64,000 nt of DNA from Novibacillus thermophilus. GTDB lineage: Bacteria > Bacillota > Bacilli > Thermoactinomycetales > Novibacillaceae. Positions within the stretch are counted from its first letter, which is position 1. The number at the start of each line of letters is the position of its first letter. The translations under genes and the position numbers were made by a program. Shown in pieces: positions 10,836-60,803 of the stretch. The stretch spans positions 2,232,001 through 2,296,000 of the forward strand of contig NZ_CP019699.1 in assembly GCF_002005165.1 (NCBI RefSeq), written 5' to 3'. The notes under the pieces were generated by a model, which worked only from the letters and a program-made list of their open reading frames with translations, did not search any database and was not told where the DNA came from.

Positions 10836-11261
10836 ATGCCAAAACCGTATAAAATTGCCGCTAAAGCCATCATTTTTCAAGGGGATCGCGTGCTGGTGCT
10901 GCGCAAGTCGAAAGAAGAGCGCTTGGCTAAAAACCATCACGGCTGGGATTTCCCCGGCGGAGGTTTGGAGCCGGACGAGCCGATTATGGAGGCGCTGGCG
11001 CGTGAAGTGTGGGAAGAAACCGGTCTGCAGGTGAAAGTGGTCGGGCCGGTCTATATTCACGATGAGGTGCAGGAAGAAAAGCACTTAGTGGTGATCAAGT
11101 TTGCGTGTCACCAACCGGAAGGGGAGCTGTTGTTAAGCGGTGAGCACGAAAGCGCCTTTTGGTTTCCCATAGACGACGTGCCAGGAAGTGTGTTGCCGGA
11201 ATGGATGAAAGACGAAGTGGCCCGGGCCTGGCACATCATCTGTAACCCGCCTGTGAAATAG
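10836..11261 (+). CDS. Nudix hydrolase
   Basis: 141 residues with a clear Nudix box: GGGLEPDEP, then EALAREVWEETGL, matching GX5EX7REUXEEXGU at about residues 43-65. Such enzymes cleave nucleoside diphosphates linked to another group, using Mg bound by the REVWEE glutamates. The gene lies 22 nt behind the thioesterase. The substrate is unknown; candidates in this size class include oxidised nucleotides and nucleotide sugars. A GGGGGACCGACG stretch lies just before the ATG and may serve as the ribosome site. Confidence 0.88.
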   Translation: MPKPYKIAAKAIIFQGDRVLVLRKSKEERLAKNHHGWDFPGGGLEPDEPIMEALAREVWEETGLQVKVVGPVYIHDEVQEEKHLVVIKFACHQPEGELLLSGEHESAFWFPIDDVPGSVLPEWMKDEVARAWHIICNPPVK

Positions 11262-21520: not shown

Positions 21521-23035
21521 ATGCGGTTGGAGTCGTCCCTGTTTAAGAGGGTGCAGGAAACGGCATACTTGAACGCCGAACGCACGTGGAGTTACCGGAC
21601 AATTTTGCGCTATTTTTACATACAGCACGAGCGGATGCAGGAATTTTTGTTTCCGGAAGAAATTTACGCTTATTTAAAGCGCCTGCCGGAATTTTACGAT
21701 TACACAGAGGAACAGCTGCACCAAGATTTGGCACAACTCGTCAACTGGAAAAATCTCGTGGCACGTCAGGAATTGAGCAACGCCAGGAGTATCGAGGAAT
21801 TTAAGAAAAAACGTTTCCGCTATCAGTGTACCCCGTATACGGTCGAGATTGAGCGGATGCTTGAGAAGTTGGAGCGGATCGGAGACAGTTTCGGCGGTTC
21901 GTTGGAACGTACGCAGTTTGACCGGCTGTATCAGTCATTGCAAGAAGTGGAAGAACTCGTGCGCACTGAAGGAGGTATCCGGGAAAAAGACGAGGAGTGC
22001 GCGCAACTGTGGGACGACGTATTCAATTACTTTCGTTCTATCGTGCAAAACACGTCCGACTACATCGCCTACATTAACAGCGAGCAAGTGGAAGAACGCA
22101 TGAAAACGGAAGCGTTTCTGGCCTACAAAGATCAGTTTACGGCCTATTTGCGCGACTTTATCATATCGCTGCAGCAGACGGCGCTGAAAATACAGGCGTT
22201 GCTCGAATCAGTGACAGTCTCCCAGCTTCACCCGTTCATCGTCAAAGTAGTCCGCCACCGCCTCTTTGTCCCCCGCTTTGAAGATATGTCCATAACAGAA
22301 GATGAGCTGATAACCGATCACATTGAAAAATGGGAAAGCTTGAAAAGATGGTTTCTCGGCAGCAGTCATCACGACAGTGAATTCCACCTGTTGCAGCTGA
22401 GGACGAATGAAACGATCCGGCGGGTGACACGGGTCGTACAGCGGCTGGGCGAGCGGTCGCACAACTTTCGCAGCCGCAAAAAGGACTATGTACACTTGGC
22501 CCGGTGGTTTTCAGAGCTGGAAGATGTGCGAGAAGCGCATGCGCTGTCGTCCGTCGTTTTCGGTGTATTCCACACTCGCCATCTGTTCAGCGACCACATT
22601 CCGTCGGAAGATCTGTACACCGACGTGTGGGAAGAACAGCCGGTAGACGTGCTCATTCGGCCGAGAATCCGCCATTACGCTGAAAAGACCCGTCCCGGTG
22701 CCGTGAAAGAGAACCGGGAGAAAAAAGAAGCGGCGCGTAAGGCCTATCTCGAAGAACGTGAACGGGAACGCGGCATCTTGGAACAGTATATCGACGGTGA
22801 CGTCATCCGGCTCAAAATGCTGCCGGTCGTGGAGGTGCATGTCCGCAAACGTTTGTTGGGGTGGATCGGGAAATCTATGGCGAAAAAAGATGGAATTATT
22901 CAAACTGAGTTGGGACATAAAATCCAGGTGACGCTCCATCTCGATCAGCCGTCCATCCGGTTGCGGGCAAAAGACGGCGTGTTAGTCATGCCTGATGCGA
23001 CGATCCGCTTTCTTGAAGAACGGGAGGTCGGTTAA
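21521..23035 (+). CDS. jetA: Wadjet type II protein JetA (TIGR02677/DUF2397)
   Basis: About 504 residues. The start (FKRVQETAYLNAERTWSYRT, then YRTILRYFYIQHER) and the overall length match the TIGR02677 family, a kleisin-like subunit of type II Wadjet. In Wadjet, JetA bridges the SMC-like JetC and holds JetB, forming a motor that extrudes plasmid DNA loops for cutting. It is the first of four tightly packed genes (jetB overlaps its stop). ATG 21521 has GAGGTG at a better distance than ATG 21515. The middle part is rich in charged helices. Confidence 0.87.
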   Translation: MRLESSLFKRVQETAYLNAERTWSYRTILRYFYIQHERMQEFLFPEEIYAYLKRLPEFYDYTEEQLHQDLAQLVNWKNLVARQELSNARSIEEFKKKRFRYQCTPYTVEIERMLEKLERIGDSFGGSLERTQFDRLYQSLQEVEELVRTEGGIREKDEECAQLWDDVFNYFRSIVQNTSDYIAYINSEQVEERMKTEAFLAYKDQFTAYLRDFIISLQQTALKIQALLESVTVSQLHPFIVKVVRHRLFVPRFEDMSITEDELITDHIEKWESLKRWFLGSSHHDSEFHLLQLRTNETIRRVTRVVQRLGERSHNFRSRKKDYVHLARWFSELEDVREAHALSSVVFGVFHTRHLFSDHIPSEDLYTDVWEEQPVDVLIRPRIRHYAEKTRPGAVKENREKKEAARKAYLEERERERGILEQYIDGDVIRLKMLPVVEVHVRKRLLGWIGKSMAKKDGIIQTELGHKIQVTLHLDQPSIRLRAKDGVLVMPDATIRFLEEREVG

Positions 23036-24216
23036 TGGAGCGCGATCTTTTTGACGAGAAAGCCCGGGAAGCGCTGAGCTTGCTGTTTGAACGTTTCTGG
23101 GTGTTGCGGGATCACGATCCGGAAGGATACCAGCTCATTCGGGAGCGGGAAAAAGTACTCACCCGCTACATCGAAGACAAATTCGGATTTCGTCTCATCG
23201 TGCACCGCTATTTTATAAAAATGGAGAAGACGCCTGTCGAACCGAAACCGTGGATGGGCATCAGCTCCTTTCAAAAACCGATGGATTACGCCATCCTTTG
23301 CTGTGCCCTCGCCTTTTTGGAAGAAAAAGCAGTAGATGAACAATTTTTGCTCTCAACGATTTGTGAAGACATTCAGGGCATGTATCCAGGAGAACTTGGA
23401 ATCGACTGGACGAACTACGAGCATCGCAAGTCGCTAGTGCGCGTGATTCGCTTTCTGACGGACTATCACTTGCTGGAGACCATCGACGGGGAGACGGACC
23501 GATTTGCCCTGGACGAAGAACAGGAAGTTTTGTACGAAGTGACCGTCTATTCCCGCTACTTCATGCGTTCTTATCCGAAGGATTTGTTTCAATACGAAAG
23601 CGTGGAGGACATTTTGCAGGCCGAGTGGGATCAACAGCGGGATGGTGAGAGGCGCAAGCGGGTGTACCGGCAATTGATGTTCTCTCCAGTCGTTTACCGT
23701 AAAGGGAACGATGACCCGGACTTTTACTACATTCGCAACATGCAGCGGAGGCTGCGGGATGACCTCGAATCCCACACCCCGTTTCGCTTAGAGATCTTCA
23801 AAAACGCGGCGATGCTCACCATACCGGAGAATAAAAGTGTGTTTACACTGTTTCCCGGCCAGAGGGCGATTCACGACCTCGTGTTGCAGCTGGCGAAAGT
23901 GCTGCGCGAAAAGAGAAAGACACACCCGCCGAACGAAATGGGAGAGATTCACCTCACTCCCGGAGAATTTCACGACCGGGTGAGAGAGTTGAAAACCCGG
24001 TTTTCCCACGGCTGGAGCAAACAGTACCGCGAAGCGACGGAGGAGGCAATCGCCGACGAACTCATCGCCGTCATGGCCGAATGGGAAATGCTTCACACTG
24101 AAGGGGATACGGGCATGATTGTGATCCGGCCGTTAGCAGGACGCGTGACAGGCGATTACCCGTCCGACTATTACGATAAATGGCAGGAGGCCAAGCAGGA
24201 TGACACACGTGAATAA
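23035..24216 (+). CDS. jetB: Wadjet type II protein JetB (TIGR02678/DUF2398)
   Basis: 393 residues. The N-terminal stretch FDEKAREALSLLFERFWVLR, the middle LVRVIRFLTDYHLLE and the repeated winged-helix character match TIGR02678. JetB is the KITE-like partner of JetA in the Wadjet complex. Its ATG overlaps the jetA stop by one base (TAATG), and its own end overlaps jetC by 17 nt, showing translational coupling. No catalytic motif is expected. Confidence 0.87.
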   Translation: MERDLFDEKAREALSLLFERFWVLRDHDPEGYQLIREREKVLTRYIEDKFGFRLIVHRYFIKMEKTPVEPKPWMGISSFQKPMDYAILCCALAFLEEKAVDEQFLLSTICEDIQGMYPGELGIDWTNYEHRKSLVRVIRFLTDYHLLETIDGETDRFALDEEQEVLYEVTVYSRYFMRSYPKDLFQYESVEDILQAEWDQQRDGERRKRVYRQLMFSPVVYRKGNDDPDFYYIRNMQRRLRDDLESHTPFRLEIFKNAAMLTIPENKSVFTLFPGQRAIHDLVLQLAKVLREKRKTHPPNEMGEIHLTPGEFHDRVRELKTRFSHGWSKQYREATEEAIADELIAVMAEWEMLHTEGDTGMIVIRPLAGRVTGDYPSDYYDKWQEAKQDDTRE

Positions 24217-27200
24217 GTGGATGCTAAACCGGGCAGGACTCCTCAACTTTTGGTATTACGACGAAGAAATTTTCCAATTCTCAAACGGCAAACTGCTGTT
24301 GCGCGGCAACAACGGTTCCGGGAAGTCGGTGACGATGCAAAGTTTTATTCCCGTGTTGCTAGACGGAAAAAAATCGCCGGACCGGCTCGATCCGTTCGGG
24401 TCCAAGGCAAGGAGAATGGAAGATTACTTGCTCGGAGAAAAAGATGTCGTCGACCGCGATGAACGCACCGGCTACCTTTTTATCGAATACAAGCGTACGA
24501 AGACGGATCAGTACGTGACGACGGGTATCGGTCTTCAGGCTAAACGGCACAAGAACATGGATTTTTGGGGGTTTGTCATATTCGACAACCGTCGCATCGG
24601 ATACGACTTCAACCTTTACAAAACAGAACGCCACGGCGGGGAAACGCGCAAAGTCCCCCTTTCCCGCGTCGAACTGGTCAACCGGATTGCAGACGGCGGT
24701 GTTGTCGTTCGGACGCAAAGCGAGTACATGCAGCTCGTCAATAAACACATTTTCGGCTTCGCGTCACAGGAACATTACGAAGACCTGATCAAACTGTTGA
24801 TTCAATTGCGCAGTCCAAAGCTCTCCAAAGATTTTAAACCGACCGTCATTTACGAAATTCTCGAAGCGGCTTTGCCGCCCCTTTCGGATGACGACTTGCG
24901 CCCCTTGTCGGACACAATTGAACATATGGATCAAACGAAACAGCAACTGGAACAGTTGGAACGCGAAGACCGGGCGCTCAAAAAACTGACGGACGCTTAT
25001 CATACGTACAACCAATACATGTTGGCAGAAAAAGCGTCGGAAGCAGTCCACGCACGACACAAATGGGAACAAGCAGAAGGGCGCTACGAACAGTTGAAAG
25101 CAAAGCACGCTGAACTCTCGCAAACCATTGAACGGCTGAAAGGGGGCATTCAGGGGCTGGAGCAAGACAGGGAAGTGGCGGAACAAGAACAAACACGGCT
25201 GTACAATCACGACGTGTGGAATCTCGAAGGGGAAAGGGAAAACCTGGAAAGCCAATGGCGTACTCTACAACGGGACGTGGAAAAAAAAGAGAGGCAGCTG
25301 GACGAGCAAAGGCGCCGCGAGCTTAAATACCGCGACGAACAAGAGAGAAAAGAAAGCGAGCAGGACGAAATCGAACGCAGCATCGAGGAGAAACTGGAAG
25401 ACCTGGCCGTCCATGCCGCAGACGCCGGGTTCGACCGACATGAAATGAACGTGGCGGACTACGCCCGCCGCGAGGAGGGGAGGGTATTTGACTTCTCGAT
25501 TTGGAAGCAGGAGGCCAACCGTCATTACGATACACTCCGACACGTGTTAGACTTGCTGCAAGACTATGAAAGTGTAAAAGATCGCTACCGGGAATTAAGT
25601 AAAGATTACGCCGACGTGATGAAGGAGATTGACCAGCTGCGCCATGAAGAACAAGAGTGGCGGAACGTTTTTGAAGAGGAGCGGGGCACACTGGAGGATG
25701 CGATTCACCGTTGGGCCAAGACTCACGCTTTTTTGCCTTTATCCGACGAAGCGATGCAACAGGCGTTGCGGGCGCTTTACGGTTTGTACGAGTCCCACGC
25801 CTACGAAGACGTCCGTCGCCCCTTGTTTGACGAGGCCCAGTCGTACCGCGAAAGGCTGCACACGGACATCGCGCAGAAAAAGCACGAACGGAACGAGCTG
25901 GAGCGGCAAATCAAAGAGTGGGAAGAAACGTTACACGTCTGGCGTTCAATGAAAGATCCTGAGCCGGACGTCCATGAGGCGACGCGGCAATCCCGGGAAA
26001 AGCTGAAAGCGGCCGGGGTGGCGTTCCTGCCCTTTTACGCGGCGGTCGAGTTTCAGGAACACGTGAACGATGCTCAGAGAGAGCGCATTGAATCGGCTTT
26101 GAAACAAATGGGACTGCTTGACGCGTTAATCGCCGAGAATGAACTAAAGGTTATACACGACAAAGTCCTTCAGCCCGCACCGAATGTGATGGCCCATTCT
26201 CTGGCAGACTATTTGCAGCCCGACGTTGACGATGCGTCCCCGATCTCAGCCGAACGAGTCGATCAAGTGCTGCGCAGTGTACTCATAGCGGATGAAGCCG
26301 TTACTGACGGCATTTCCCTTGACGAAAACGGGGAGTATTCGCACGGGCTTATTAAAGGTCATGCACCGCCGGAGCAAAAGGTGCGTTTCATCGGGCGCAC
26401 GGCGCGGGAGCGCTACCGCCGTGATAAAATACGTGAAGCCGAAGAAGCGATCGCTTCCTTACAAACAGAAAAAGCCGGTGTCGAGGGTGCGATTGACGCG
26501 TTGGAAGCGACTGTCGCAAACGTGAGGAAAGCGCTGGACTGTTTTCCCGAGGATTCCGATTTACACACGAGCTTTGAACACATACGCCAAACACAGTTGG
26601 CCGTTGAACAGAAAACGCGCCAGCGGGAGCAGATGGACGAGCGGTTAAAAGCGGTGGACCGGGAGTACAAGACGTTAAAGCGGGCGGTTGAGAAAGAGAC
26701 GGCTGACATCCCCTTTCCACTCACGAGAGAAGCGTTTCACGATGCGCTGGCGGCCATGCGGCAATACGAAAAAATCCTCAGCGAGTTAGGCAACGAAGAG
26801 TTGCGGCGAGCAAACGTTGTGCAACATATCGAACATCTCAAGGAACTCATTGAACAGCAGGCGGAAGAAGTCGACGGGTTGAAGGGAGAGCTGAACGAAC
26901 TCACTGACCGGAAACAGCGAACCGGCATGCACCTCGACAGTGTGCGCAAGCAGATCGAGCAGATGGGGGCGGACGACATCCGCAGGCAAATTAGCGAGGT
27001 TCAACAGCGCCTGGAAAGTATTAAATCAGAGTTGGAGTCGAAACGGCGCGAACTTCCGGAAGCGGAGGTCGCTTTGGAACAGACCGACAACAACTTGGCC
27101 ACTTTGGACAGAGAACGGGACTTTTGGAAAAAATTGAGCTGTTCATGGCTAGACGCTTACAAGAAAGAAGTCTCGACGGGTTTCGTGGACGTTAAACCGG

Positions 27201-28360
27201 CTGAAGATGCGTGGGACCAGGCGGCAGCCGTGAAAAAGACGTTGGCTCCGTTTTACGCGCAACATGAACGGGCGAAAGTGAGCGAATGGCTGACGAAGGC
27301 TTTTTACAGCGAACAGCCGAGCTTGATGGAATACCGCTTATCCGAGTATGAAGAGCGGGTGAAACAGCCGGAGTGGATGGACAGAGACGACTGGAAAGAC
27401 GAACACAAACATATGCTTGAACGGTGGAAGCAGTTGACTTCCCGCAATTACATTGAGTTAGACTACCAAGGGCAGCGGGTCAGTCCGTATTTTGTCAAAC
27501 GGGCTGTTGAGGACGAAATGACCCGCAACAAGGAGTATTTAAAAGAACAGGATCGCGAGCTGTACGAAGAAATCATTTTGAACTCTGTCGGCAACATGTT
27601 GCGCAGCCGCATTCAGCGTGCCGAACGATGGGTGAAAGAGATGAACAGTTTAATGCTCAAGCGCGACAATTCCTCCGGGTTGACGTTTTCGATACAGTGG
27701 AAACCGCGGACGGCGGAGGCGGAGGAAGAATTGGACACGAAGGATTTAGTCGAGCTGTTGCGCATGAATCCCCGGCTGTTAAAAGACTCGGACTTGGACA
27801 GCGTTACCCGCCATTTCCGCTCCAAGATCGACCGGGCCAAGGCGTTGGCCGATGAAAGCAGGGTCGGCCATACATTGCACCAGGTGCTTAAAGATGTGCT
27901 CGATTACCGCAAGTGGTTTTCGTTCATTTTGCATTACAAGCGGGAGAATGAACCGAAGCGAGAGCTGACGAACAACGCGTTTTACAAGTTCAGCGGAGGG
28001 GAAAAGGCGATGGCGATGTACATTCCCCTTTTTGCCGCTGCTTACTCGCGTTACAGAGAAGCCGATGACGCGGCGCCTTACATTATTTCGTTGGATGAAG
28101 CGTTTGCCGGCGTAGACGAGAATAACATTCGGGATATGTTCAAAGTACTGGAGGAGCTCGACTTTAACTACATCATGAATTCCCAAGCGCTTTGGGGCGA
28201 CTATGACACTGTGAGCGAACTCTCTATTTGCGAGCTCGTGCGGCCGAAAAATGCGGATTACGTTACCGTCATTCACTACTATTGGGACGGACGTGAGAGA
28301 CAGTACGTGCCGCAGACCGAAATGGATGCGGCAAAAAGAGAAATAGCGGCAACACAGTAG
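24200..28360 (+). CDS. jetC: Wadjet type II protein JetC, SMC/MukB-like ATPase (TIGR02680)
   Basis: 1386 residues. The Walker A loop GNNGSGKS is at residues 36-43. Long coiled coils rich in E, K, Q and R fill about 260-1150. The ABC signature FSGGEKA is at about 1264 and Walker B IISLDEAFAG at about 1295-1304 (DE 1299-1300). This is the SMC-type motor of Wadjet: two copies use ATP to extrude DNA loops until a small closed circle is recognised. Its length and the N-terminal LLNFWYYDEEIFQFSNGKLL fit TIGR02680 rather than type I JetC. All ATPase motifs are intact, so the motor looks functional. Confidence 0.93.
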   Translation: MTHVNKWMLNRAGLLNFWYYDEEIFQFSNGKLLLRGNNGSGKSVTMQSFIPVLLDGKKSPDRLDPFGSKARRMEDYLLGEKDVVDRDERTGYLFIEYKRTKTDQYVTTGIGLQAKRHKNMDFWGFVIFDNRRIGYDFNLYKTERHGGETRKVPLSRVELVNRIADGGVVVRTQSEYMQLVNKHIFGFASQEHYEDLIKLLIQLRSPKLSKDFKPTVIYEILEAALPPLSDDDLRPLSDTIEHMDQTKQQLEQLEREDRALKKLTDAYHTYNQYMLAEKASEAVHARHKWEQAEGRYEQLKAKHAELSQTIERLKGGIQGLEQDREVAEQEQTRLYNHDVWNLEGERENLESQWRTLQRDVEKKERQLDEQRRRELKYRDEQERKESEQDEIERSIEEKLEDLAVHAADAGFDRHEMNVADYARREEGRVFDFSIWKQEANRHYDTLRHVLDLLQDYESVKDRYRELSKDYADVMKEIDQLRHEEQEWRNVFEEERGTLEDAIHRWAKTHAFLPLSDEAMQQALRALYGLYESHAYEDVRRPLFDEAQSYRERLHTDIAQKKHERNELERQIKEWEETLHVWRSMKDPEPDVHEATRQSREKLKAAGVAFLPFYAAVEFQEHVNDAQRERIESALKQMGLLDALIAENELKVIHDKVLQPAPNVMAHSLADYLQPDVDDASPISAERVDQVLRSVLIADEAVTDGISLDENGEYSHGLIKGHAPPEQKVRFIGRTARERYRRDKIREAEEAIASLQTEKAGVEGAIDALEATVANVRKALDCFPEDSDLHTSFEHIRQTQLAVEQKTRQREQMDERLKAVDREYKTLKRAVEKETADIPFPLTREAFHDALAAMRQYEKILSELGNEELRRANVVQHIEHLKELIEQQAEEVDGLKGELNELTDRKQRTGMHLDSVRKQIEQMGADDIRRQISEVQQRLESIKSELESKRRELPEAEVALEQTDNNLATLDRERDFWKKLSCSWLDAYKKEVSTGFVDVKPAEDAWDQAAAVKKTLAPFYAQHERAKVSEWLTKAFYSEQPSLMEYRLSEYEERVKQPEWMDRDDWKDEHKHMLERWKQLTSRNYIELDYQGQRVSPYFVKRAVEDEMTRNKEYLKEQDRELYEEIILNSVGNMLRSRIQRAERWVKEMNSLMLKRDNSSGLTFSIQWKPRTAEAEEELDTKDLVELLRMNPRLLKDSDLDSVTRHFRSKIDRAKALADESRVGHTLHQVLKDVLDYRKWFSFILHYKRENEPKRELTNNAFYKFSGGEKAMAMYIPLFAAAYSRYREADDAAPYIISLDEAFAGVDENNIRDMFKVLEELDFNYIMNSQALWGDYDTVSELSICELVRPKNADYVTVIHYYWDGRERQYVPQTEMDAAKREIAATQ

Positions 28361-28381
28361 GTGGACAGGCAGGTGTCTTGG

Positions 28382-29683
28382 ATGACAGAGCTGTCTTCCG
28401 TTGAGGAAGCTGTTCGTTTTTTTCGTGAAGAACCAGGATTCGATCGGTTGTTTCGTCTGTTTAAAAAGAAATGCGAATCTCTTGGGCGTGTCGGCGGTTC
28501 CGTTAAACTGTCGCAGTTCACTGAAGCGGAATTGCGGTCCATCGCCAATTTTTACGGCACCTCTTACGACACGTTCGTCGAAAAGGACATGGTGCGTTTA
28601 AAAGGGTTTGAACAGCAGCTGCAAAAGACACGTTTCGAAGGTGTGGCATTGCACGAGCTGTTGGAGACGTATTTCGGCGAACGGCTCATGTCAAATAAAA
28701 TGAAACGGGAACAAGAGCGAGCAGAGGTTCGCGCCTTTTTCGCCAAATGCGCTGACATGTATCCCGCCATTGTCGAGTGGATCGTTCATGTGTTACAAAA
28801 GCCTGCCGATGCACGATTTATTTACAATCTCGAACGGGAGAACCGCGACCGGTTGCAAAAGATGATCGCGTGTGTTGCCAAGGCCATGTCCCAATTGCCT
28901 GGGAAAGGAGAGGCCGAGCGGCTGCCGCTTTTTGCCCAACGCGTGACTGGTAACCCCCATGCATTTGATGTACAAGGGGAACAAGGAAGACTGTTCCTTC
29001 ACGCCCTCGCCGTTCACCGGGCGCGGAAGGAAGGCGAAGCAGTGCGCATGCCGAACGGAAGTGAGGAAATGAACGATTTGTTACAGTACGCAGGGCTTTT
29101 GCGGGATGATTTGCACAACTTTGTCACGTGTGCGGGTCTGTTGGCAGAAACGGCCAGAGGGGTTCATCCGGTGTGGCGCGAAGCGGCATTGTCTTACACC
29201 GTTTGGCACGTTCCGGTGCGGGAACTAGTCAAAACCGTGAGCATTTACCCGTACAGGGGACGTCATGTGTGGATCGTGGAAAATTCCGGAGTGTATTCAG
29301 CCATACTCGATGCGTGTCCGGAAGCGCCGATTGTATGTACGCACGGGCAGTTTAAATTAGCGACTTGGTTACTGCTGGACCGGATAACGCGACATAATGT
29401 TGTACTTTATTATTCCGGTGATTACGATCCGGAAGGACTTAGAATGGCGCAAAACCTGAAAGACCGCTATCGGGAACACATTCAATTTTGGCGCATGGAT
29501 GTGGAGAATTACAGAAGCACCAAGCCGCAAAAAAAGGTTGGCCAGGATCGTTTAAAAAAATTAGAGCGGATTACCCACCCGGAACTGTTACCCGTTGCCA
29601 GCGAGATGAAGCGGTTGCAAGCAGCCGGGTATCAAGAAGCTTTAACCGATAGCTTTATTCACGATATAAGGTGTTCACTCTAA
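28382..29683 (+). CDS. jetD: Wadjet type II nuclease JetD (TIGR02679/DUF2399, Toprim-like)
   Basis: About 433 residues. The C-terminal Toprim-like domain has its glutamate in VWIVENSGVYSA (Glu about 300) and the DxD pair in SGDYDPEGL (Asp about 347 and 349). JetD is the nuclease that cuts circular DNA once the JetABC motor has extruded it. All acidic residues expected for metal binding are present. The start is either ATG 28382 with AGGTG upstream, or GTG 28361 directly after the jetC stop. The stop lies only 2 nt from that of the convergent next gene. Confidence 0.9.
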   Translation: MTELSSVEEAVRFFREEPGFDRLFRLFKKKCESLGRVGGSVKLSQFTEAELRSIANFYGTSYDTFVEKDMVRLKGFEQQLQKTRFEGVALHELLETYFGERLMSNKMKREQERAEVRAFFAKCADMYPAIVEWIVHVLQKPADARFIYNLERENRDRLQKMIACVAKAMSQLPGKGEAERLPLFAQRVTGNPHAFDVQGEQGRLFLHALAVHRARKEGEAVRMPNGSEEMNDLLQYAGLLRDDLHNFVTCAGLLAETARGVHPVWREAALSYTVWHVPVRELVKTVSIYPYRGRHVWIVENSGVYSAILDACPEAPIVCTHGQFKLATWLLLDRITRHNVVLYYSGDYDPEGLRMAQNLKDRYREHIQFWRMDVENYRSTKPQKKVGQDRLKKLERITHPELLPVASEMKRLQAAGYQEALTDSFIHDIRCSL

Positions 29684-29685
29684 TT

Positions 29686-29997
29686 TCAGAAGACAATCCC
29701 CTGCCTTTCCATTTCCCGCTTAGTCTCCGGTGTGCCCAATTCGTATATCAGTTTGTAAATGGCGTACATGTTGGCGTCGTAGTCGTCGTTTTCTTTGTCC
29801 AGTTGGTGGTACGGCACAATCGGAATGTGGGAAAGGACAAACGTCCCCCAGTCGGCTTTATCTTTGTGGTTAAACATGTCTTGCAGTCTTTTAATGTCGT
29901 CCTCGCTCGCTTCGATTTCAAATTCGTAGGGAGAATCGGTTTTGTCGTTCAGAATGTCACCTGAGGCAACCGAAACGTAATACGTTTGCTTTTCCAT
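29686..29997 (-). CDS. Hypothetical protein, 103 residues
   Basis: ATG 29997 has GGAGG 9 nt before it; an upstream in-frame ATG lacks one. The sequence begins EKQTYYVSVASGDIL and ends YELGTPETKREMERQGI, with an acidic middle. I recall similar small uncharacterised Bacilli proteins but no established function. There are no membrane segments or cysteines. It converges with jetD with a 2-nt gap and no terminator between, so the two transcripts overlap. Confidence 0.75.
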   Translation of the reverse strand: MEKQTYYVSVASGDILNDKTDSPYEFEIEASEDDIKRLQDMFNHKDKADWGTFVLSHIPIVPYHQLDKENDDYDANMYAIYKLIYELGTPETKREMERQGIVF

Positions 29998-30140
29998 CGT
30001 ACAGAACCTCCGCATGTTCAATCACTCATAGGTTTTCCCAAAGCATACAGATTATGAGTCCAAGCAATTTAAGCACCATTCTGCATGACATATTACATAG
30101 CATACGGATAATGTGTGTCAGGCGAACGAATGGCCGATAA

Positions 30141-30179: not shown

Positions 30180-30458
30180 CTACTGGAATTTGTTCTGTTG
30201 ATTTTGGGCCTGCTGCAATTGTTGCTGGGCTTGTTGCAACTGCTGTTCGGCCTGTTGAATCTGTTGTTGTTGCTGCGTATTGGCTTGCGCCCCTTGCTGT
30301 GCTTGTTGCAGTTGCTGTTGCGCCTGTTGCAACTGCTGTTGGGCTTGTTGCAACTGTTGAGGGTTCGCACTTTGCTGTGCTTGTTGCACGGCCTGTTGGG
30401 CTTGTTGAGCCGCTTGAACTGCCTGCTGCAACTGCTGTTGATTCTGTTGTTGTGCCAT
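30180..30458 (-). CDS. Small glutamine/alanine-rich low-complexity protein
   Basis: 92 residues made almost only of Q, A, L and N, with repeats of QQLQQAQQ. The ATG at 30458 has AAGGAGG about 10 nt before it and the gene has a strong terminator, so it is very probably expressed. The 7-residue rhythm suggests an alpha-helical or coiled-coil rod. It is not a typical alpha/beta or gamma SASP. Upstream, TGTATA and CAAAGTA about 15 nt apart loosely resemble a forespore (SigG/SigF) promoter. A spore-related structural role is a guess. The frames on the other strand are artefacts of the repeats. Confidence 0.75.
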   Translation of the reverse strand: MAQQQNQQQLQQAVQAAQQAQQAVQQAQQSANPQQLQQAQQQLQQAQQQLQQAQQGAQANTQQQQQIQQAEQQLQQAQQQLQQAQNQQNKFQ

Positions 30459-30545
30459 AGAAGAAAACCTCCTTGAGTAGTCGCTTGTGGTGAGAGACGT
30501 GTCCTCTCTCCCTTTATACTTTGTAAACTTCGTTGGTTTATACAT

Positions 30546-60236: not shown

Positions 60237-60803
60237 GTGCAGGAAGGGAAAACGGTCGAACAGTGTCTCAAGGCGAAAAGCGGCGATCGGAAGGCGATGG
60301 AATGTTTAGTACGGCAATACCGACCTTTGATGGTCAGTCTCGCCAACAAATGGAGGGGGTACGGGTTTGACGATGCCCTGCAGGAAGCGCATGTGGCCGC
60401 TCTAGAGGCCGTCATGCAATATAGCCCGGACGTTGGGTGTCCCTTTGGTACGTTCTTAAAACAGCGCATGAGATCCCATTTGCGCACGTGGGGACGACGG
60501 CAAGTTCGCTGGGTCGACAGACACGTTGCCGCTTCCGCCAGCCATCACGGCGATGACGCAACACTGCTCCCCGTTGAAGAGTGGGCCGATGTGCAGACCG
60601 ACTTCAGCCGACTGCCGGTGGAGTGGGCAGAATGGCTCGACGCGCTGTCGCCCCGGGAACAACTCGTGCTGAAGAAACAAGTCATCGAAGGGTACACGTT
60701 ACAGGAAATTGCCGAAGAAGAATCGGTCTCCCGCCACACCGTTCACACGTGGAAAAAGCGGGCGATGAAGAAACTGCGAAGCCGTGTGGCCGAAGAGGAG
60801 TGA
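60237..60803 (+). CDS. Small sigma-70 family RNA polymerase sigma factor
   Basis: 188 residues. Region 2: AMECLVRQYRPLMVSLANKW, then GYGFDDALQEAHVAALEAV, the helix that binds core and the -10. Region 4: LSPREQLVLKKQVIEGYTLQ, then EIAEEESVSRHTVHTWKKR, the -35 helix-turn-helix. No anti-sigma gene is evident. The size and shape resemble SigO/YvrI-type or phage-like sigma factors. GTG 60237 has GGAGGAG. It is followed by DUF1659, DUF2922 and YvrJ genes, a set that accompanies such sigma factors; target genes unknown. Confidence 0.88.
   Translation: MQEGKTVEQCLKAKSGDRKAMECLVRQYRPLMVSLANKWRGYGFDDALQEAHVAALEAVMQYSPDVGCPFGTFLKQRMRSHLRTWGRRQVRWVDRHVAASASHHGDDATLLPVEEWADVQTDFSRLPVEWAEWLDALSPREQLVLKKQVIEGYTLQEIAEEESVSRHTVHTWKKRAMKKLRSRVAEEE

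What the first reader, a model, noticed from the sequence alone, without database searches (positions are those of the whole stretch)
21521..29683. Complete type II Wadjet (JetABCD) anti-plasmid system
All four genes are intact, overlapping or adjacent, with full ATPase motifs in JetC and the Toprim-like acids in JetD. The genome probably restricts small circular plasmids.
Basis: partly seen in the sequence, partly recalled or inferred. Interest (0 to 1): 0.7.

Follow-up and report, generated by a model that had tools for sequence, protein, structure and literature searches.

The report
Ordinary complete type II Wadjet operon
This is a complete, intact copy of a known bacterial defence system (type II Wadjet) that most likely finds and cuts small circular plasmids; it is an ordinary member of a known family.

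Summary
Window 21521-29683 (+) carries four intact, tightly packed genes in the order jetA-jetB-jetC-jetD. JetA, JetB and JetC match chains so named in solved entries 9qe0/9qe1 over nearly their whole length. JetD has no solved relative by sequence, but its predicted fold (mean pLDDT 91) has the C. glutamicum nuclease, topoisomerase VI A, P. aeruginosa JetD and Spo11 as best matches. ATPase motifs and Toprim-type acids are conserved in relatives. No second defence system shows in the window. In a sister genus the two genes that flank the operon lie close together without it, so it was perhaps gained here; loss there is not excluded. Type II Wadjet is already described, reconstituted and solved, so this is a new member of a known kind. 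Activity in this host is inferred, not shown.

The parts
21521..23035 (+). jetA (type II, DUF2397, kleisin subunit); start 21521 preferred over 21515
   Evidence: TIGR02677 439.6 bits; PADLOC JetA2 723.4 bits; PF09660; chain 9qe0_E 'JetA' E 2.1e-167; spacing of GAGGTG to the start
23035..24216 (+). jetB (type II, DUF2398, KITE subunit)
   Evidence: TIGR02678 309 bits; PADLOC JetB2 528.5 bits; PF09661; chain 9qe0_D 'JetB' E 2.2e-133
24200..28360 (+). jetC (type II, SMC ATPase, 1386 aa) with Walker A, signature and Walker B motifs
   Evidence: TIGR02680 1054 bits; PADLOC JetC2 1698.2 bits; PF13558; chain 9qe0_A 'JetC' 1328 bits over residues 5-1374; motifs
28382..29683 (+). jetD (type II, nuclease with Toprim domain); ATG 28382 preferred, open frame begins at GTG 28361
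   Evidence: TIGR02679 255.1 bits; PADLOC JetD2 501.6 bits; PF11796, PF09664; invariant E307, D354, D356 in the 440-aa numbering; predicted fold matches 8b7f and 7til; AGGTG 6 bases before 28382; residues 1-10 of the long form have pLDDT under 50

Best explanation
It is a complete type II Wadjet (JetABCD) operon. By homology to reconstituted type I and type II complexes, a dimeric JetABC SMC motor loads on DNA and uses ATP to extrude it as loops; on a small circle extrusion runs to completion, and this switches on the JetD nuclease, which cuts the circle without sequence preference. The chromosome escapes, perhaps because extrusion on it does not complete. Shown here: four intact genes of the right families, ATPase motifs, Toprim-type acids, the predicted JetD fold, conserved gene order. 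Taken from the literature on relatives: extrusion, cleavage and plasmid restriction. Not shown at all: expression or activity in this organism.
For: All four NCBIfam cut-offs passed. Type II models win for every protein (JetC2 1698 against JetC1 86 bits; JetD2 502 against JetD1 45 and JetD3 17; JetA and JetB match no other type at E 0.001). Near full-length matches to solved JetA, JetB, JetC. JetD predicted fold: best Foldseek match 8b7f, nuclease from C. glutamicum, E 8.1e-08, with 7til JetD of P. aeruginosa third; VIA-align Z 15.6 (rmsd 7.2, 263 aligned) and 13.2 (rmsd 10.8, 271 aligned). Same gene order in 15 of the 16 named loci fetched with JetD; the sixteenth, L026, begins inside jetC at its contig end. 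Weak support: the genome is a single 3.63-Mb contig with no separate plasmid contig, and JetD relatives occur in 8 of 72,556 plasmid records, all 8 of them 148,985 bases or longer. Published: deletion of native jetABCD in Clostridium cellulovorans raised conjugation about five orders of magnitude (PMC12287153, abstract; its subtype is not stated in what I read); N. vireti Wadjet-II cleaves naked circular DNA (PMC12647877, passages).
Against: No expression or activity data. The promoter scan finds no sigma-70-like site between the upstream gene and jetA, and promoter-like hits in the region are no more than shuffles give (5 against 6.0). A single-contig genome is weak evidence, since genomes without Wadjet can also lack plasmids. 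The plasmid-size pattern is biased, as large plasmids hold more genes, and it also shows that such genes can ride on plasmids. The JetD fold matches have low whole-chain TM-scores (0.28-0.38 by query length for 7til and 8b7f) and large rmsd, so they show shared domains, not a shared arrangement.
Confidence: 0.92

Rival explanations
1. The operon is intact in sequence but silent, or used mainly for chromosome organisation (a MukBEF-like role), with plasmid restriction secondary.
For: No promoter-like site found upstream of jetA; a review notes that an MksBEF complex of P. [quoted passage not shown]
Against: jetD is intact with its invariant acids; a purely chromosome-organising system would not be expected to keep the nuclease. 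The consensus promoter scan is weak evidence.
Confidence: 0.06
2. It is a type I or type III Wadjet, or another SMC-like defence system such as Lamassu.
For: Weak cross-hits to JetC1, JetD1, JetD3 and LmuB.
Against: For JetC and JetD the best of those hits has less than a tenth of the bits of the type II hit; JetA and JetB hit only type II models at E 0.001.
Confidence: 0.01

Closest known systems
Type II Wadjet (JetABCD) of Neobacillus vireti LMG 21834 (nvJET)
   Same: JetA, JetB and JetC match the solved chains 9qe0/9qe1 nearly end to end; the printed part of the JetC alignment includes the middle, hinge-side region. That these entries are the N. vireti complex is my inference from a paper title in the reference list of PMC12647877.
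   Different: JetC 1386 against 1371 residues, with short gaps in the part of the alignment printed. No solved JetD relative was found by sequence.
JetABCD of Scopulibacillus darangshiensis (L021)
   Same: Closest of the 16 named loci fetched: 72, 74, 64 and 59% identity for JetA-D, same order
   Different: Ordinary sequence divergence
Type I Wadjet / MksBEFG (E. coli GF4-3, P. aeruginosa PA14, C. glutamicum)
   Same: Same four roles by the literature; JetD fold matches 8b7f and 7til
   Different: JetA and JetB match no type I model at E 0.001; JetC and JetD only remotely alike

Membership tests
Type II Wadjet | JetA of family TIGR02677 / DUF2397 | tested here: met
   439.6 bits, cut-off 165.85; JetA2 723.4 bits
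Type II Wadjet | JetB of family TIGR02678 / DUF2398 | tested here: met
   309 bits, cut-off 124.65; JetB2 528.5 bits
Type II Wadjet | JetC of family TIGR02680 with complete SMC ATPase motifs | tested here: met
   1054 bits, cut-off 462.85; motifs at residues 36, 1265, 1296
Type II Wadjet | JetD of family TIGR02679 with Toprim acids | tested here: met
   255.1 bits, cut-off 196; E307, D354, D356 invariant in 14 of 14 aligned; fold. That these three are the metal-binding acids is recalled, not mapped residue by residue.
Type II Wadjet | Operon order jetA-jetB-jetC-jetD | tested here: met
   same order in 15 of 16 named loci, the sixteenth cut by its contig end
Type II Wadjet | Restriction and cleavage of small circular DNA | not testable with these tools
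   Known for relatives (PMC12647877 passages; PMC12287153 abstract)
Type I Wadjet | Best match to JetA1/B1/C1/D1 models | tested here: not met
   JetA and JetB hit no type I model at E 0.001; JetC1 86 against JetC2 1698 bits; JetD1 45 against JetD2 502 bits

The most novel reading that the evidence does not exclude
The N-terminal 'FDE' stretch of type II JetB (window JetB residues 6-8; D in 14 of 14, F in 10 of 14 and E in 11 of 14 aligned sequences) could be the counterpart of the N-terminal IFDR motif through which JetB contacts JetD in a type I system (PMC10586767, passage): a shared docking or activation element across Wadjet types. I made no search in print for this idea.
Probability: 0.25. 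Interest if true: 0.35.

Novelty: new member of a known kind. Interest (0 to 1): 0.15.

Why it matters
It predicts that this organism resists small circular plasmids, so removing jetD or the operon could make it easier to transform, as was found for Clostridium cellulovorans (PMC12287153, abstract). It also adds one intact type II set to a subtype that, by a 2023 review (PMC10586767, passage), has had less study than type I.

Tried and rejected
Defence island: 58 further mechanically chosen ORFs of the window (62 chosen, the four jet genes left out) were scanned against PADLOC at E 1e-5; two families rang, PDC-S07 and MzaA, one ORF each. PDC-S07 falls on 10836-11258, which also matches Nudix hydrolase families below their cut-offs; MzaA is a marginal match, E 4.6e-06, on 60237-60800. 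Neither indicates a second system in the window.

Second Wadjet in the genome: one TIGR02680 match only. Types I and III were not searched for outside the window.

Sequence search for a solved type II JetD relative: none at E 0.1, and a 14-sequence profile gave only three chance-level tRNA synthetase matches, which I rejected.

Phage carriage: no JetC match in 50,697 phage records at E 1e-5.

Compositional sign of import: operon G+C 51.9% against 52.8% for the window, so none.

Import by synteny: only partly borne out. Of 12 window proteins compared with 18 kb of G001, four matched (hydrolase, 111-aa ORF, DUF255 protein, glutaredoxin-like ORF); the upstream rhomboid, glutaminase and 140-aa LysM-like proteins and the 121-aa ORF did not, nor did the four Jet proteins.

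Promoters and terminators: promoter-like hits 5 against 6.0 expected, terminator-like 17 against 11.9 +/- 3.5; not used.

Fold comparison: VIA-align rows mostly span model residues 164-440, so the N-terminal part of JetD is barely tested.

Rows dropped or flawed: in the JetC alignment L020 and L029, read through in one frame, have 53 and 8 stops, so the signature and Walker B could be read in 12 of 14 relatives only; L024 has one stop; L026 (cut by contig end) and L028 (partial) were left out. The JetD and JetB alignments each hold the window plus 13 of the 16 named loci (L017, L026, L028 left out). Ten of the 13 JetB relatives, and several JetC relatives, were extended a few codons upstream of the match, so their first residues are uncertain.

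Full report
The window holds four long open frames in a row on the + strand between 21515 and 29683. jetA ends in TAATG, sharing one base with jetB; jetB and jetC overlap by 17 bases; jetC and the longest jetD frame abut. Pfam gives DUF2397, DUF2398, SbcC/RAD50-like Walker B, and DUF3323 plus DUF2399 with JetD_C.

The subtype is type II. PADLOC's best models are JetA2 (723.4 bits), JetB2 (528.5), JetC2 (1698.2) and JetD2 (501.6). JetA and JetB hit no type I or III model at E 0.001; JetC1 reaches 86 bits, JetD1 45 and JetD3 17. JetA, JetB and JetC match solved chains of those names in 9qe0/9qe1 nearly end to end. That these entries are the N. vireti complex is inferred from a title in the reference list of PMC12647877; I did not read that structure paper.

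The catalytic parts are intact. JetC has GNNGSGKS at residue 36, SGGEKA at 1265 and ISLDEAF at 1296. Among 14 relatives aligned, Walker A (GxNGSGKS) is kept in 14; the signature and SLDEAF are readable in 12, the two misses having frame breaks in the stretch read. JetD E307, D354 and D356, in the VENSGV and GDxDPEG motifs, are invariant in the 14 aligned sequences, window included. That these are the metal-binding Toprim acids is read from position and recalled knowledge of the domain; a paper reports four essential residues in JetD of B. cereus Q1 and P. aeruginosa PA14 (PMC12287153, section 15 read), but I did not map them one by one.

JetD has no solved relative by sequence, alone at E 0.1 or as a profile. 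A model built on 14 sequences has mean pLDDT 91.3 and pTM 0.53, so the domains are confident and their arrangement is not. Foldseek ranks the C. glutamicum nuclease 8b7f first (E 8.1e-08); topoisomerase VI A, P. aeruginosa JetD (7til) and Spo11 are the only others under E 0.001 (8 chains in all). Whole-chain TM-scores are low, 0.28-0.38 by query length. VIA-align gives topoisomerase VI A 1d3y Z 16.3 (rmsd 5.2, 244 aligned), 8b7f Z 15.6 (rmsd 7.2, 263 aligned) and 7til Z 13.2 (rmsd 10.8, 271 aligned), mostly over residues 164-440; the first two are tied. So the model supports a Toprim nuclease of the JetD / topoisomerase VI A kind, but does not by itself single out JetD. It fits the description of JetD as CAP plus Toprim (PMC10586767, passages); the N-terminal part was barely tested.

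Start codons. For jetD, the frame opens at GTG 28361 with no evident ribosome-binding site, while ATG 28382 has AGGTG 6 bases upstream, and residues 1-10 of the long form are modelled with pLDDT under 50. jetD therefore probably starts at 28382 (433 aa).

Context. Upstream lie rhomboid, glutaminase and fumarylacetoacetate-hydrolase-like genes; downstream a convergent 111-aa ORF whose stop lies two bases from the jetD stop, then a 121-aa ORF and a DUF255 protein. Scans of 58 other ORFs of the window for defence families found no second system. G001 is the only genome of the same family among the 60 relatives returned. There the hydrolase, the 111-aa ORF, the DUF255 protein and the glutaredoxin-like ORF keep their order; the hydrolase and the 111-aa ORF are about 1.3 kb apart, with other small ORFs and no jet match between them. 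But the genes upstream of the hydrolase are not shared, and further ORFs lie between the 111-aa ORF and the DUF255 gene in G001, so the region is variable in general. Gain of the operon between these two genes is likely, loss in the sister is not excluded. G001 holds, at another place, a broken JetD-like fragment (TIGR02679 E 1.6e-10 with one stop; tblastn 26% over 170 columns), which suggests that Wadjet genes have come and gone in this family. Among 61 genomes searched (own included), 11 match TIGR02679, 7 of them over the cut-off, and 11 match TIGR02680, 10 of them over the cut-off. The distribution is patchy, as is usual for defence genes.

Function. The model in PMC10586767 and PMC12647877 (passages) is that dimeric JetABC extrudes DNA and JetD cuts once a small circle is fully extruded. 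N. vireti Wadjet-II cuts naked circular DNA but has a hinge without a channel and could not pass a large obstacle (PMC12647877, passages). The hinge-side middle of JetC here aligns to the solved chain with only short gaps, so the same behaviour is expected; this is inference. In C. cellulovorans, deleting native jetABCD raised conjugation about five orders of magnitude (PMC12287153, abstract), and in Bacillota plasmids were found in only 32 of about 1,442 strains with a jetD orthologue (section 17 read); that survey used B. cereus Q1 queries, so its bearing on type II is uncertain. Two weak facts here agree: the genome is one contig, and JetD relatives in the plasmid collection are found in 8 of 72,556 records, each 148,985 bases or longer, 4 of them covering at least 80% of the query. 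The second is biased by plasmid length.

Verdict: a correct and careful annotation of an ordinary, complete type II Wadjet. The only slightly fresh lead is the N-terminal FDE stretch of type II JetB, which resembles the IFDR motif through which JetB contacts JetD in a type I system (PMC10586767, passage).

Noticed in passing
   Followed up: partly
window 30180-30545 (-): 121-aa ORF made mostly of Q and A repeats (QQAQQ...); no Pfam match and no tblastn match in the sister genus stretch.
   Followed up: partly
window 29686-30021 (-): 111-aa ORF of no Pfam family, 47% identical to an ORF at the same place in the sister genus; convergent with jetD, 2 bases between the stops.
   Followed up: partly
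L020 (Shouchella shacheensis) and L029 (UBA5389): jetC matches lie in different frames in these draft genomes: either sequencing errors or decay.
   Followed up: no
L028 (Metabacillus malikii): Only partial JetB and JetC matches between JetA and JetD: a decayed or divergent operon.
   Followed up: no
window 10836-11258 (+): Nudix-like ORF matches PADLOC candidate family PDC-S07 at E 5.9e-18; probably a housekeeping Nudix hydrolase.
   Followed up: partly
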